Source: Conexibacter woesei Iso977N (GTDB lineage Bacteria; Actinomycetota; Thermoleophilia; Solirubrobacterales; Solirubrobacteraceae). From it: a DNA stretch of 64,000 nt. A program made the translations under genes and the position numbers. Shown here one piece after another: positions 2-48,623 of the stretch. Position 1 is the first letter of the stretch; each line of letters opens with the position of its first letter. Under the pieces are notes generated by a model. That model was not told the DNA's origin. It saw only the letters and a list, made by a program, of their open reading frames with translations, and ran no database searches. Where the stretch lies: positions 1,302,001 to 1,366,000 of the forward strand of contig NZ_AUKG01000002.1 of NCBI RefSeq assembly GCF_000424625.1, in the 5' to 3' direction.

Positions 2-1546
2 CCGATCATCGGCCCGACGTACGGGGTGATCCTGTACCAGGAGCAGTCGATGCTCATCTCCAAGGAGCTCGCGGGCTTCACGGGGGCGCAGGCCGACGAC
101 CTCCGCAAGGCGATCGGCAAGAAGAACCGCGCGGCGATGGCCAAGCTGGAGCCGATGTTCCGCGAGGGCGCCGCCAGGAACGGCGTGGCGCAGTCGACGA
201 TCGACTGGCTCTGGGCGACCAACGAGAAGTCCGCCGACTACTCCTTCAACAAGTCCCACGCGGCGTGCTACGCGCTGATCTCCTACCGGACGGCGTGGCT
301 GAAGGCCAACTACTGCGCGGAGTACATGGCCGCGCTGATCTCGTCGGTCATGGACACCAAGGACAAGGTGCCCTTCTTCGCCGCGCGCTGCGACGAGATG
401 GGGATCGAGATCCTGCCCCCGGACGTCAACCTGTCCGACCACGAGTTCGTCGTCGTGGATGGCAACATCCGCTTCGGGCTGGACGCCGTCAAGGGCGTCG
501 GCTACGCGGCGGTCGAGGCGATGAAGCGCGCCCGCGAGGATGGCGGCAACTTCACGTCGATCTGGGACTTCTGCGAGCGCGTCGACCCCAAGGCCGTCAA
601 CAAGCGGTCGATCGAGGCGCTGATCAAGTGCGGGGCCTTCGGCTCGACGGGCGCGTCGCGCAAGGGCATGTTGTCGGTCCTGGAGCAGGCCCAAGGCGCC
701 GGCCAGAAGGTCCAGCAGGACGCCGAGATCGGGCAGGGGTCGATCTTCGACCTGTTCGACACCGGCGGCGGTGGGGGCGGCGACAACGGTGCCGCGGCCG
801 CGTTCGCCGGGCCGACGCACCCGCCGATCCCGGAGGAGGAGTTCGAGAAGAACGAGCTGCTCGCCCACGAGAAGGACGCGATCGGGCTGTTCCTGTCGAT
901 GCACCCCCTCAAGGAGGTGCGCGAGGCGCTGATGGAGGCGGTCGACAAGCCGCTGTCGGAGCTGCCGAGGACCAAGGACGGCGAGTGGACGACGGTCGGC
1001 GGGATCATCACCGCCGCGCGCAAGCTCAAGACGCGGACGGGCAACATGATGATGTTCGCGACGCTCGACGACCTCGAGGGCTCGGTCGAGCTGATCTTCT
1101 TCGGCGACCAGCTCGCCGAGTACGAGCACGTCGCGCAGATCGACTCGATCATCACCGTCCGCGGCCGCGTCGGCAACGACGACCGCGGGCTGACGATCAA
1201 GGTCCAGGCGTGCGAGAAGTTCGAGCCGACCGAGGCCGAGGTCGAGATCGCCCGCGCCAAGGCGGTCGAGGTCGCCAAGGGCCCCGAGGCCCTGACGCTG
1301 CTGCTCGACGCCAACAGCCTGCCGGCCTCGATCATCCAGACGCTCAAGGACATCTTCGAGAACCACGTCGGCGAGTCCGACGTCGTCCTCGACGTCAAGA
1401 CCTCCGCCGGCGGCCGCCTGCTCAAGCTGGGCTCCGACTACCGCGTCAACCCGACACCATCACTGCGCGCCGAGCTGGCCCGCATCCTCGGCCCCCAGGC
1501 GCTCCCGGCGCCGGCCGCCGCCGAGGCCACACCGGCGCCGGTCTGA
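2..1546 (+). CDS. dnaE: DNA polymerase III alpha subunit, C-terminal part
   Basis: This is the 3' end of the replicative polymerase gene, entering from the left edge in frame 2, so the start and the catalytic aspartates lie outside the window. The visible 514 residues open with TYGVILYQEQSM, a conserved stretch of the DnaE active-site half. The helix-hairpin-helix region follows (about residues 170-215), with a glycine-rich insertion near residue 255. The OB fold starts at about residue 329 (WTTVGGIITAARK) and is followed by the tau-binding C-terminal domain. No defect is seen in the part present. The small membrane gene at 1557 follows after 10 bases and may be cotranscribed. Confidence 0.96.
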   Translation, partial: PIIGPTYGVILYQEQSMLISKELAGFTGAQADDLRKAIGKKNRAAMAKLEPMFREGAARNGVAQSTIDWLWATNEKSADYSFNKSHAACYALISYRTAWLKANYCAEYMAALISSVMDTKDKVPFFAARCDEMGIEILPPDVNLSDHEFVVVDGNIRFGLDAVKGVGYAAVEAMKRAREDGGNFTSIWDFCERVDPKAVNKRSIEALIKCGAFGSTGASRKGMLSVLEQAQGAGQKVQQDAEIGQGSIFDLFDTGGGGGGDNGAAAAFAGPTHPPIPEEEFEKNELLAHEKDAIGLFLSMHPLKEVREALMEAVDKPLSELPRTKDGEWTTVGGIITAARKLKTRTGNMMMFATLDDLEGSVELIFFGDQLAEYEHVAQIDSIITVRGRVGNDDRGLTIKVQACEKFEPTEAEVEIARAKAVEVAKGPEALTLLLDANSLPASIIQTLKDIFENHVGESDVVLDVKTSAGGRLLKLGSDYRVNPTPSLRAELARILGPQALPAPAAAEATPAPV

Positions 1547-1556
1547 GCCGCGCGCG

Positions 1557-1922
1557 ATGCCGGCCGTAGGGGCCCCGGCCGGTCATCGCTGGCGCTGGCT
1601 CGTGCTGCCGGCGGCCACCGCGGTGGCCGCTGGCGGGTTCTGGGGCGCGGGGGATGCAGACGGCGACCTCGGGATCGTCGGCTTCCTCGCGGTGCCGCTC
1701 TTCTGGGCGGCCGGCTACCTCACGCGGTGGTGGGCGTTGCCGGCGCCGCCGCTCGCGCTGGTCGTCGGCGTGGAGCTCGGCTCCAGCGACAACGAGTACG
1801 CGTGGATGAGCTACGCCGCCGGGCTGGTGCTCTGCCAGACAGCCGTCGTCTGGGGCCTGCTGCAGCGCTGGCGGGAGATCCGGTCGCGGTCGGTTGGCGT
1901 TCGCCCCGAGCGCCCCGGCTGA
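1557..1922 (+). CDS. small hydrophobic membrane protein, function unknown
   Basis: This encodes 121 residues with about three hydrophobic segments (roughly 12-27, 37-53 and 60-105), mostly Ala, Val, Leu and Trp, and a basic C-terminal tail (QRWREIRSRSVGVRPERP). It probably sits in the inner membrane with the tail in the cytoplasm. The ATG lies 10 bases after the dnaE stop, with no clear Shine-Dalgarno of its own, so translation may depend on dnaE transcription. No family is recognised. Codon third positions are GC-rich like its neighbours, which supports a real gene, but a protein this short and compositionally simple cannot be assigned a role. Confidence 0.6.
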   Translation: MPAVGAPAGHRWRWLVLPAATAVAAGGFWGAGDADGDLGIVGFLAVPLFWAAGYLTRWWALPAPPLALVVGVELGSSDNEYAWMSYAAGLVLCQTAVVWGLLQRWREIRSRSVGVRPERPG

Positions 1923-2045
1923 TCGTCGGCGGGCCGGCGCCCGCCGCGTCGAGCAGGGGTGACGACGCGACGGGGTGGCCGTGCCGCGGCGGCAGCGAAG
2001 GAAGGGCTGCGCGCAGCGTCTCTGAGTGGATTGGTGAACCGGAAT

Positions 2046-2239
2046 GTGGGGTGGCAATCACCCAGTCGCGGGTGAGTGATTTCCCCCAACGACTGCCCGC
2101 GGAGCGGTACGGTCGCGAATGCGGCCCCCGCTCTGTCGCTGGACCGGGGGCGGGGGCCGCACTCACGCGCTTCCCATGCGTTGGGCGAAGCCGCCCGCAA
2201 GCAGTTTCTCCAGGGTCCGCGGGTTAGAAACCACCGCAC
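2046..2239 (+). ncRNA. structured RNA candidate, cobalamin-riboswitch-like
   Basis: This lies in the 382-base gene-free stretch between convergent genes and can fold into a closed multi-helix unit. The ends pair (2046-2054 with 2231-2239, 8 of 9 positions). Inside are 2063-2068 with 2090-2095 (perfect), enclosing GGG/CCC; 2097-2100 with 2104-2107; a perfect 10-bp stem 2121-2130/2151-2160; 2183-2187/2192-2196; and 2204-2209/2226-2231. Length, helix order and the strings GGTGAGTGATTTCC, CTGCCCGCGGAGCGGTA and GTTAGAAACCACCG resemble the core and 3' box of actinobacterial cobalamin riboswitches, judged by eye. The usual GGGAA is missing and the 3' box is imperfect. No plus-strand gene follows before gltX at 3223. 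The structure is likely; the family is uncertain. Confidence 0.4.
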
Positions 2240-2281
2240 CTGGCCGAAGGTCCAGGCAGCCAGGCCCGGATCGCTGGGCAT

Positions 2282-2295
2282 GGCGCCCCGGCGCC
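2282..2295. terminator. hairpin in the nfo 3' flank
   Basis: A perfect inverted repeat of GGCGCC arms around CC lies 9 bases beyond the nfo stop codon. It would follow the structured RNA on the plus strand and nfo on the minus strand. There is no T-run on either side, so a terminator role is plausible in this GC-rich genome but unproven. Confidence 0.4.
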
Positions 2296-2304
2296 CGCCG
2301 CGGC

Positions 2305-3174
2305 CTACCTGCGCTTCTTGCGCGCCTTCTCGCCCTCGGCGCGGAGGGTGTGGCAGAGCTGGAGCTCCTCGGCGGTCGGGCCCTTCCTGTCGGGGCCGGG
2401 CGTCTCGAGGATCACCGGGAGGCCGTCGAAGCGCGGCTCGCTCAGGAACACGGCGCAGCCGTCGCGGCCCAGCTCGCCCTCGCCGACGTCGGCGTGGCGG
2501 TCCCTGTTGCTGCCCAGCGCGCCGACGGAGTCGTTGAAGTGCAGCGAGCCGAGACGGTCCAGGCCGACCGCGGCGTCGGCCTCGTCCAGGACCGCGGACA
2601 ACGCCTCAGCGGTCCGGATGTCGTAGCCACTCGCGTAGAGGTGGCACGAGTCCAGGCACATGCCGAGCCGCTCGTCGCCGCCGGCGGCGTCGATCAGCGC
2701 GGCCAGCTCGCCGAACGAGCGCCCGAGCGTGCCGCCGGCGCCCGCGGTGTTCTCCAGGTGCAGCGCGCAGTTCTCCGACTCGGCCAGCGCCTCCCGGATC
2801 ACCTCTCCGGCTCGCCTGATCGCGGGCGGGACCTCGCCGGTCTTGGCCGACCCCGGATGCAGGACCACGCTCACCGCGCCCAGCGCGTCGCCCGCCTGCA
2901 GCGACGTCGTCAGCGACGTCAGCGTCTTCCTGCGGATCTCGTCGTCCTCGGTCGCCGCGTTGAGCAGGTAGACCGCGTGGATCATCAGCGCGTCGACCTC
3001 GCTGTCGGCCATCGCCGTCCTGAAGTCCGCGACCGCCTCGTCGCTGTAGACCGTCGGCCTCCACATCCGCGGGCTCTGGTTGAAGATCTGGATCGCGCGA
3101 GCACCGCGTTCGGTGCCGCGCTCGACGGCCTTCGCGGGGCCGCCGGCGGGGGAGACGTGTGCGCCGATGAGCAT
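2305..3174 (-). CDS. nfo: endonuclease IV (AP endonuclease)
   Basis: This metal-dependent apurinic/apyrimidinic endonuclease (AP endonuclease family 2, TIM barrel) incises abasic sites in base excision repair. The 289 residues start MLIGAHVSPAGG, the family N-terminus, which fixes the ATG at 3174; an upstream in-frame extension is rejected. Zinc-ligand and barrel motifs are present in order: IFNQSPRMW, MIHAVYLLN, VVLHPG, LHLENTAG, CLDSCHLYASGYD, LHFNDS, HADVGEGELG and ILETPG. The C-terminus is short and basic (KARKKRR). The gene diverges from gltX across 48 bases, and its 3' end faces the structured RNA at 2046-2239, whose transcript could run antisense to it. Confidence 0.95.
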   Translation of the reverse strand: MLIGAHVSPAGGPAKAVERGTERGARAIQIFNQSPRMWRPTVYSDEAVADFRTAMADSEVDALMIHAVYLLNAATEDDEIRRKTLTSLTTSLQAGDALGAVSVVLHPGSAKTGEVPPAIRRAGEVIREALAESENCALHLENTAGAGGTLGRSFGELAALIDAAGGDERLGMCLDSCHLYASGYDIRTAEALSAVLDEADAAVGLDRLGSLHFNDSVGALGSNRDRHADVGEGELGRDGCAVFLSEPRFDGLPVILETPGPDRKGPTAEELQLCHTLRAEGEKARKKRR

Positions 3175-3208
3175 GTGATCCACAGTCCTACCGCATGAGC
3201 CCGTCACC

Positions 3209-3214
3209 TAGAGT
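3209..3214 (+). promoter_or_regulatory. -10 element of gltX, leaderless type
   Basis: TAGAGT lies 8 bases before the gltX ATG, so transcription would start at or next to the start codon. No Shine-Dalgarno fits in that gap. Twelve to fifteen other genes here show the same arrangement. Confidence 0.5.
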
Positions 3215-3222
3215 GCGCATTG

Positions 3223-4554
3223 ATGCGCGTTCGCTTCGCTCCCTCCCCGACCGGCGCCCTCCACATCGGTGGCGCCCGGACCGCCCTCTACAACTGGCTC
3301 ATGGCCCGCGGCAACGCGGGGACGCTGGTGCTCCGGATCGAGGACACCGACAAGGAGCGCTCGACGCCCGAGAACGTCGAGCAGATCCTCGACGCGCTGA
3401 CGTGGCTGGAGCTCGACTACGACGAGGGCCCGATCTCGCAGCTCTCGCGCACCGACCGCCACCAGGAGCTGCTGCAGAGGCTGCTCGACGAGGGCAAGGC
3501 CTACAGGTCGACCGCGACCGGCGAGGACGTCAGGAAGTTCAAGGAGCAGCACGGCGCCGACAAGGGCTTCCGCGGCACGCCGGAGGCCGAGGGCGCCGTC
3601 CGCCTGAAGGTCCCCGACGAGGGCTCGACCACCGTCCACGACCTCATCCGCGGCGACACGGTCTTCCAGCACGTCCACATGGACGACCCCGTGATCGCCC
3701 GCGCCGACGGCAGCGTCCTCTACAACTTCGCGGTCGCCGTCGACGACCTCGACGCGCAGATCACCCACGTCGTCCGCGGCGAGGACCACCTCTCCAACAC
3801 GCCCAAGCAGCTGCTGGTCTACGAGGCGCTCGGCGCGCAGCCGCCGCTCTTCGCCCACCTGCCGCTCCTGCACGGCCCGGACGGCAAGAAGCTCTCCAAG
3901 CGCCACGGCGCCGCGTCCGTCCAGGAGCTGCGCGACGCGGGCTTCCTGCCCGAGGCCGTCCGCAACTACCTCGCGCTGCTCGGCTGGGGCGCCGCCGACG
4001 ACCAGACGATCCTCACCACCCACGAGCTGACCGAGCAGTTCGACGTCGCGCGCGTGCAGAAGAACCCGGCGCAGTTCGACGTCAAGAAGCTCACGTGGCT
4101 CAACGGCCGCTACATCCGCGAGATGGACGTCGATGAGCTCACCAAGCGCGTCGAGCAGTTCACCGGCCGCACCGGCCTGCGCGAGGCGGTCGCGATCTCG
4201 CAGGAGAAGATCGGCACGCTCGCCGACTTCTGGCCGCTGGCCGGCTTCCTCTTCGACGGCCCGCAGGACGATCCCAAGGCGCGCGAGAAGTGGCACGACG
4301 CCGACCACCGCCACGCGCTCGTCCAGGCCCGCGAGGCGATCGCCACCACGTCGACCTTCGACGTCGAGCACCTCGAGGTCGCGCTGCGCGAGGTCGTCGA
4401 GGCCGATCCGGAGCGCAAGCCCAAGGACGTCTACCAGCCGATCCGGGTCGCGCTGGCCGGGACGACGGTCTCGCCGGGCATCTTCGAGTCGCTCGCGGTC
4501 CTCGGCCGCGACGAGTCGCTGAAGCGCCTCGATGCGGCGCTGAACCACGCCTGA
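3223..4554 (+). CDS. gltX: glutamyl-tRNA synthetase (class I)
   Basis: This charges tRNA-Glu with glutamate in the cytoplasm. Because gatCAB is also in this window, it may be a non-discriminating enzyme that also mischarges tRNA-Gln (inference). The 443 residues begin MRVRFAPSPTGALHIGGART, containing the HIGH-type ATP signature (HIGG). The KMSKS-type motif appears as KKLSKRHG near residue 228. The stem-contact and anticodon-binding helical domains fill the rest. ATG 3223 is preferred over the adjacent in-frame TTG at 3220 because the catalytic strand MRVRFAPSPTG begins there and the -10 spacing fits. It is slightly shorter than typical GltX (about 470 residues). Confidence 0.95.
   Translation: MRVRFAPSPTGALHIGGARTALYNWLMARGNAGTLVLRIEDTDKERSTPENVEQILDALTWLELDYDEGPISQLSRTDRHQELLQRLLDEGKAYRSTATGEDVRKFKEQHGADKGFRGTPEAEGAVRLKVPDEGSTTVHDLIRGDTVFQHVHMDDPVIARADGSVLYNFAVAVDDLDAQITHVVRGEDHLSNTPKQLLVYEALGAQPPLFAHLPLLHGPDGKKLSKRHGAASVQELRDAGFLPEAVRNYLALLGWGAADDQTILTTHELTEQFDVARVQKNPAQFDVKKLTWLNGRYIREMDVDELTKRVEQFTGRTGLREAVAISQEKIGTLADFWPLAGFLFDGPQDDPKAREKWHDADHRHALVQAREAIATTSTFDVEHLEVALREVVEADPERKPKDVYQPIRVALAGTTVSPGIFESLAVLGRDESLKRLDAALNHA

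Positions 4555-47376: not shown

Positions 47377-48623
<1,247 letters not shown>

What the first reader, a model, noticed from the sequence alone, without database searches (positions are those of the whole stretch)
2046..2239. Orphan structured RNA resembling a cobalamin riboswitch, possibly antisense to nfo
Seen: at least six compatible helices with closing ends, in a gene-free 382-base gap. There is by-eye similarity to actinobacterial cobalamin aptamers (GGTGAGTGATTTCC, CTGCCCGCGGAGCGGTA and a GTTAGAAACCACCG 3' box). No coding gene follows on the plus strand until 3223; instead the transcript would run antisense into nfo. Known: B12 riboswitches can control antisense RNAs (PocR in Listeria) and regulatory sRNAs (EutX/Rli55). 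Inference: a vitamin-sensing ncRNA or antisense regulator of endonuclease IV, or a relic of a lost gene.
Basis: partly seen in the sequence, partly recalled or inferred. Interest (0 to 1): 0.65.

Follow-up and report, generated by a model that had tools for sequence, protein, structure and literature searches.

The report
Conserved hairpin RNA beside endonuclease gene
The stretch is not a vitamin B12 sensor but carries what looks like a small RNA gene, with a promoter-like box and an evolutionarily conserved hairpin, found so far only in a handful of related soil bacteria.

Summary
No Rfam family fits 1900-2340, while the same genome holds three cobalamin riboswitches elsewhere: not a B12 aptamer. 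The conserved core is a hairpin at 2121-2160. A model of it gives 8 strong hits in 146 family genomes (56.6-76.9 bits; next 29.1). All 8 lie at the 3' end of nfo, 7 with dnaE upstream. Among 5 distinct hairpins 80 of 80 pair cells are standard and 5 of 16 pairs change on both sides. Read on the minus strand 87.5% of cells pair, which favours plus-strand RNA. The apex CGCUGGACCGGGGG is invariant. A TANNNTCG box sits 28-30 bases before it in 8 of 8 copies and is the only TANNNT in 800 bases in 7 of 8. Best reading: a small noncoding RNA with its own promoter that starts with this hairpin, probably inherited with losses. It is a new, narrow family of a known kind. What the loop binds is unknown; transcription is untested.

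The parts
2070..2087 (+). block GGGTGAGTGATTTCCCCC conserved in the genus, near where a -35 element would lie; possible regulator site, or 3' half of a terminator of the upstream gene
   Evidence: alignment of 4 genus members, ungapped to the -10-like box; only exact match in the window's genome
2108..2113 (+). -10-like box TACGGT (TANNNTCG in all copies)
   Evidence: 8 of 8 copies at 28-30 bases before the apex; only TANNNT in 800 bases in 7 of 8
2119..2121 (+). inferred transcription start
   Evidence: inference from the spacing to the -10-like box; not tested
2121..2160 (+). conserved hairpin, 13-pair stem plus 3 apical pairs, invariant apical sequence CGCUGGACCGGGGG
   Evidence: R1 model 76.9 bits; covariation; fold z -5.0
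2170..2180 (+). box CTTCCCATGCG, same letters in 3 of 4 genus sequences, CTCCCATGCG in G002
   Evidence: read by eye from the sequences; the alignment shifts it by some bases in G005
2183..2196 (+). possible second small hairpin GGGC..GCCC, with other letters in 3 relatives
   Evidence: RNAalifold predicts a helix here, but some of its pairs break, so weak
2203..2211 (+). box AGTTTCTCC (AGTGTCTCC twice, AGGTCCTCC once in relatives)
2227..2232 (+). box GAAACC (GAAGCC in G002), last block kept in the genus; RNA may end near 2240
   Evidence: end is inferred, no T-run terminator found
2305..3207 (-). nfo, endonuclease IV family, convergent neighbour in 8 of 8 copies
   Evidence: PF01261
26..1546 (+). 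dnaE 3' part, upstream neighbour in 7 of 8 copies (with another ORF between in the window and in G001)
   Evidence: PF14579, PF17657

Best explanation
This is a small noncoding RNA gene on the plus strand. A -10 box (TACGGT, 2108-2113) starts a transcript at about 2119. The RNA opens with a strong hairpin (2121-2160) that protects its 5' end and displays a fixed apical sequence. In this genus it probably runs on to about 2240, through three short conserved boxes. The invariant apex (in four relatives: two unpaired bases, three pairs CCG/CGG, loop CUGGAC) is the working part, recognised in trans by a protein or another RNA. Shown here: hairpin, covariation, strand preference of the pairs, fixed position of the -10-like box, and location beside nfo. 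Inferred: that the box is a promoter, transcription, the RNA's ends, action in trans, and recognition of the loop.
For: 8 of 146 family genomes have strong model hits, all beside nfo. 6 hairpins aligned, 5 distinct (G001 and G005, identical to the window here, were left out): 80 of 80 cells paired, 5 of 16 pairs with changes on both sides; shuffle mean 1.8, 1 of 500 as high; slid controls 0 or 1. The same helix on the minus strand pairs in 70 of 80 cells, because 10 G-U cells become A-C. Stem letters change while the apex CGCTGGACCGGGGG does not. TANNNTCG lies at a fixed distance with variable inner bases (CGG, GCT, CCG, ATG), 8 of 8. 40 of 40 hairpin columns are identical in four genus members while the flanks diverge. 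Single copy: the second-best place in the window's genome scores 20.0 bits, E 0.96. Carriers cluster on the nfo tree: 3 changes against 7.2 by shuffling, 0 of 500 as low.
Against: No transcript data. The scan found no sigma-70-type promoter pair and no T-run terminator. Changes on both sides are equally many on the minus strand, and its hairpin also folds well (z -5.25), so the strand rests on the wobble pairs and the box alone. Only 5 distinct hairpins support the covariation, and a stem indel sits near its base. In two species the hairpin is 3 and 12 bases from the nfo stop, leaving no room for the boxes seen in the genus. In the window the lowest-energy apex is a GCUG tetraloop (-35.3), not the CUGGAC hexaloop (-31.0 kcal/mol) of the relatives. 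138 of 146 family genomes have no strong hit, among them one genus member 97% complete (G006).
Confidence: 0.68

Rival explanations
1. A transcription barrier between the convergent genes dnaE and nfo: a strong hairpin that ends or protects both messages, with no RNA gene of its own.
For: It lies between convergent genes in 7 of 7 copies where both are seen, and is very stable on both strands. In G009 a T-run hairpin that would end the nfo message lies just beyond it (by eye, sequence).
Against: No T-run terminator in the window. The loop is invariant while the stem covaries, which termination does not need. The pairs favour one strand. 17 of the 18 dnaE-nfo junctions printed lack it, and 138 of 146 family genomes have no strong hit. 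It would not explain the fixed TANNNTCG. In the window and G001 dnaE is 560-595 bases away, with another ORF between.
Confidence: 0.15
2. A cis-antisense RNA that starts at 2119 and runs into the 3' end of nfo, damping endonuclease IV.
For: Next to the nfo stop in 8 of 8 copies, only 3 and 12 bases away in two species. No terminator is seen before nfo.
Against: Gap to nfo varies from 3 to 283 bases. An antisense RNA does not need a conserved hairpin loop. In the genus the conserved blocks stop before nfo.
Confidence: 0.1
3. Cobalamin riboswitch or a relic of one.
For: By-eye similarity of three strings only.
Against: No RF00174 match at E up to 10, while three are found elsewhere in the same genome; no likely gene follows on its strand for about 1 kb; the core is strongly conserved.
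Confidence: 0.01
4. A short leader peptide or leaderless small protein starting at the ATG at 2119.
For: ATG follows the -10-like box at a leaderless spacing in 5 of 8 copies.
Against: No ATG there in G009, G050, G051. By eye, G067 has a one-base shift in the conserved part and the boxes downstream fall in different frames in the genus; no formal coding test was run.
Confidence: 0.03

Closest known systems
Bacterial trans-acting small RNAs with a 5' hairpin (general class)
   Same: intergenic, single copy, -10-like box, stable hairpin with covariation
   Different: no match above cut-off to any of 4227 Rfam families at the site or in 7 relatives' loci (which lists matches with E up to 1: two, both under their cut-offs); strong hits in 4 of 25 genera of the family; no target known
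CsrB/RsmZ-type RNAs that sequester CsrA
   Same: GGA at positions 3-5 of an apical hexaloop in four relatives; csrA in 131 of 146 family genomes and in all 8 carriers; G009 and G050 show a second UGGACCGG stretch
   Different: the window's RNA has one GGA only; the loop is CUGGA, not ANGGA; in the window the hexaloop is not the lowest-energy apex
Cobalamin riboswitch RF00174
   Same: three short strings by eye
   Different: no model match; no likely gene follows on its strand for about 1 kb
6S RNA RF00013
   Same: an orphan structured RNA in a genome where the model finds no 6S (none in 6 genomes searched)
   Different: short near-perfect stem with a conserved apex rather than a long hairpin with a central bubble (shape of 6S recalled, from no call)

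Membership tests
Cobalamin riboswitch (RF00174) | match to the family's covariance model | tested here: not met
   no match at gathering or at E up to 10; positive control: three matches over the cut-off elsewhere in the genome
Cobalamin riboswitch (RF00174) | lies in the leader of a gene it controls | tested here: not met
   next likely plus-strand gene, gltX, begins about 1 kb away, beyond nfo on the other strand
CsrA-sequestering RNA (CsrB/RsmZ type) | several GGA hairpins | tested here: not met
   one GGA in the first 134 bases of the window's putative RNA; 2-6 GGA, not all in loops, in the other seven copies
CsrA-sequestering RNA (CsrB/RsmZ type) | ANGGA in a hexaloop (motif seen in passages of PMC4894983) | tested here: not met
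   CUGGAC in 8 of 8; GGA register fits, the A does not
CsrA-sequestering RNA (CsrB/RsmZ type) | a CsrA protein to bind | tested here: met
   csrA in all 8 carriers, but also in 131 of 146 genomes, so uninformative
Intrinsic terminator | G+C hairpin followed by a T-run | tested here: not met
   0 found in window 1500-3300; the relatives were not scanned with this tool
6S RNA (RF00013) | match to the family's covariance model | tested here: not met
   none in 6 genomes; 5 of 14 controls match, 4 over the cut-off; no match at the site
Independent small RNA gene | conserved -10-like box at the right place | tested here: met
   TANNNTCG at fixed distance 8 of 8
Independent small RNA gene | complete promoter with -35 box | tested here: not met
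   0 sigma-70-type pairs in 1500-3300; 0.0 expected, so the scan has little power in such DNA
Independent small RNA gene | a transcript with defined ends | not testable with these tools
   no expression data available
Repetitive palindrome (REP, mobile element end) | many copies per genome | tested here: not met
   one strong copy in the genome; no exact pattern match in viral contigs, no match in plasmids

The most novel reading that the evidence does not exclude
The RNA is a CsrA-binding decoy of the Actinobacteriota: its apex shows GGA in the register of CsrA hexaloops, csrA is nearly universal in the family, and two carriers show a second such stretch. It would be a one- or two-site sponge unrelated to CsrB in lineages thought to control CsrA through FliW.
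Probability: 0.07. Interest if true: 0.75.

Novelty: new member of a known kind. Interest (0 to 1): 0.42.

Why it matters
Structured RNAs of this actinobacterial order seem little studied: the three literature searches that named Solirubrobacter, Thermoleophilia or Conexibacter listed 5 papers, none on such RNAs by title and abstract start. This gives a compact candidate with a -10-like box, a covarying stem and an invariant apex, small enough to test by pull-down. If expressed, it would be an RNA family not in the Rfam release searched, tied to a fixed place between a DNA polymerase gene and a DNA repair gene.

Tried and rejected
Cobalamin aptamer: rejected. Leader peptide: rejected by eye, ATG in 5 of 8 copies and frame not kept. 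Intrinsic terminator with T-run: not found in the window. 6S RNA: no match. Mobile palindrome: single copy in the genome, no match in viral contigs (exact pattern) or plasmids. CsrB-like sponge: motif not met.

Upstream block GGGTGARYGATYTCCCC as a regulon motif: with up to 2 mismatches 2-6 places per genome in 6 genomes (reversed-pattern control 0-3); exact matches only at the locus itself in G000, G001 and G005; one place with 1 mismatch elsewhere in G000; not pursued.

Weak model hits, taken as chance: L149 (29.1 bits) is, by eye, a hairpin followed by a T-run; L060 (27.8) looks coding by eye; L150 (26.8) and L061 (27.9) were printed but not analysed further. In one search, 11 of 40 genomes had a hit at E up to 0.5, none over 26.5 bits; 5 of these 12 places were printed. 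One, L109, has a similar loop and a TACCGT box at another locus (23.0 bits, E 0.1) and remains undecided. Rfam near-misses in relatives (ASdes 24.8 bits against a cut-off of 40 in L029; mir-619 in L004) were set aside.

Papers: searches were seen as listings with abstract starts (2, 8, 10, 1 and 2 papers). Of PMC4894983, PMC10746217 and PMC4682653 I saw passages only.

Full report
What was claimed.

Check of the observation. The gap 1923-2304 is real and lies between a 121-codon plus-strand ORF without Pfam match and the 3' end of nfo (PF01261); dnaE precedes and gltX follows. As a whole, 2020-2300 is not more structured than shuffled sequence on the plus strand (z -1.15, 29 of 200) and is so on the minus strand (z -2.82, 0 of 200). 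One hairpin stands out: 2119-2165 folds at -37.5 kcal/mol with z -5.0 on the plus strand, and at -32.3 with z -5.25 on the minus strand.

Not cobalamin. cmscan of the window at gathering scores finds only a ZTP riboswitch at 47386-47468. On 1900-2340 at E up to 10 it finds only a sub-threshold microRNA match. The model is able to find its targets here: RF00174 matches three other places in this genome, at 86.1, 48.4 and 38.1 bits.

Relatives. A DNA search of 41 genomes gave matches in 12; beyond the window's own, G001 (84% over 174 bases), G005 (77%), G002 and G009 were followed, and the rest were short with E of 1e-5 or weaker. These four lie next to nfo. A pattern of the hairpin's upper part, up to 3 mismatches, matched 7 of 146 family genomes: it added G067, and two places that look coding by eye, in G100 and a second one in G001. 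Reading the junctions of the 30 best nfo loci showed a diverged copy in G050. A covariance model from five sequences (R1) found G051 as well. Over the 146 family genomes R1 reaches E 0.02 in 11: 8 strong (56.6-76.9 bits) and three weak (29.1, 27.8, 26.8 bits). In 399 genomes of the class it reaches E 0.01 in 7: five of the same eight, and two weak. These searches score a limited number of first-look places per genome (13, 38 or 139), so diverged copies may be missed. I also gave R1 71 sources directly: the window, four first loci, 25 of the 30 nfo loci (the other five being the same genomes as the window and the four), L059, and 40 further stretches of the roughly 100 nfo places not yet held. 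It found the same 8 genomes; all other rows were under 24 bits. One exact scan of the named species collection found four records, three Solirubrobacteraceae or Solirubrobacterales MAGs and one Conexibacter MAG.

Place. All 8 copies sit at the 3' end of nfo; in 7 the dnaE end is upstream, and in G005 no dnaE was found in the stretch held. In the window and G001 dnaE is 560 and 595 bases from the box, in the other five 18-106. The distance from hairpin to nfo stop is 146, 103, 283, 85, 80, 3, 107 and 12 bases for G000, G001, G005, G002, G009, G067, G050 and G051. On an nfo tree of 31 rows (the 30 best loci and G051) the carriers need 3 changes against 7.2 for shuffled labels, and none of 200 bootstrap trees makes them one clade. 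This fits inheritance with losses; it is not proof. G006, G016 and G052, from carrier genera, have no strong hit.

Hairpin. For 6 rows, 5 distinct, 80 of 80 cells form standard pairs and 5 of 16 pairs change on both sides (shuffle mean 1.8, 1 of 500 as high; slid structures 0 or 1). The same helix on the minus strand has as many changes on both sides, but 70 of 80 cells paired: the 10 departures are G-U pairs of the plus strand, which suggests that selection acts on plus-strand RNA. The apex CGCTGGACCGGGGG is invariant. In G009, G067, G050 and G051 the best fold is a stem, two unpaired 5' bases, CCG/CGG and loop CUGGAC. In the window the best fold is instead GUC-GCUG-GAC, -35.3 against -31.0 kcal/mol for the hexaloop form. 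G050 and G009 carry a second, partial UGGACCGG copy downstream; in the G050 fold of 93 bases the first arm appears to pair with the second copy.

Promoter-like box. TANNNTCG lies 28-30 bases before the apex in 8 of 8 copies with inner bases CGG, GCT, CCG or ATG. It is the only TANNNTCG in the 800 bases around in all 8, and the only TANNNT in 7 of 8. No sigma-70-type pair was found in the window, nor expected by chance. In the genus a block GGTNANYGATYTCCCC lies at a constant distance upstream. By eye its left neighbour can pair with it, so it may instead be a terminator of the upstream gene.

Rest of the RNA. In the four genus members short boxes go on to about 2240. A second small helix is weakly supported, some pairs break. 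By eye no coding frame is kept.

Function. I commit to a trans-acting small RNA with a recognised apex. The partner is unknown. CsrA was considered because GGA is in the right register and csrA occurs in 131 of 146 genomes. But the window's RNA has a single GGA, and CUGGA is not the ANGGA motif given in passages of PMC4894983. A passage of PMC4682653 lists Actinobacteria among groups that may use FliW to control CsrA. So CsrA is kept only as the novel case.

Verdict. A new, narrow RNA family candidate of a known kind; the B12 reading is refuted; transcription is the missing proof.

Noticed in passing
window 47386-47468: ZMP/ZTP riboswitch (58.1 bits, gathering 39) just upstream of an ORF that looks like a phosphoserine aminotransferase (serC, by eye) and downstream of an ilvC-like ORF.
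   Followed up: partly
L051 (G006), between nfo and an acetyltransferase-like ORF: This genus member without a strong hit has a repeated short palindrome of the type AAGGTGCCTGGCACCTT at this junction (by eye).
   Followed up: no
L029 (G050) about 1348-1450: A second partial copy of the hairpin's 3' half could compete with the first for the same 5' arm, a possible two-state RNA.
   Followed up: partly
L109 (G065) 43-89: A weak hit at another locus (23.0 bits, E 0.1) with loop ACUGGACCGGC and TACCGT upstream, before a HAD-hydrolase-like ORF by eye; may be chance.
   Followed up: partly
family genomes: csrA is found in 131 of 146 genomes, some with two or three copies, including genomes of 1.6-1.7 Mb; wider than I would expect for a flagellar regulator only.
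   Followed up: no
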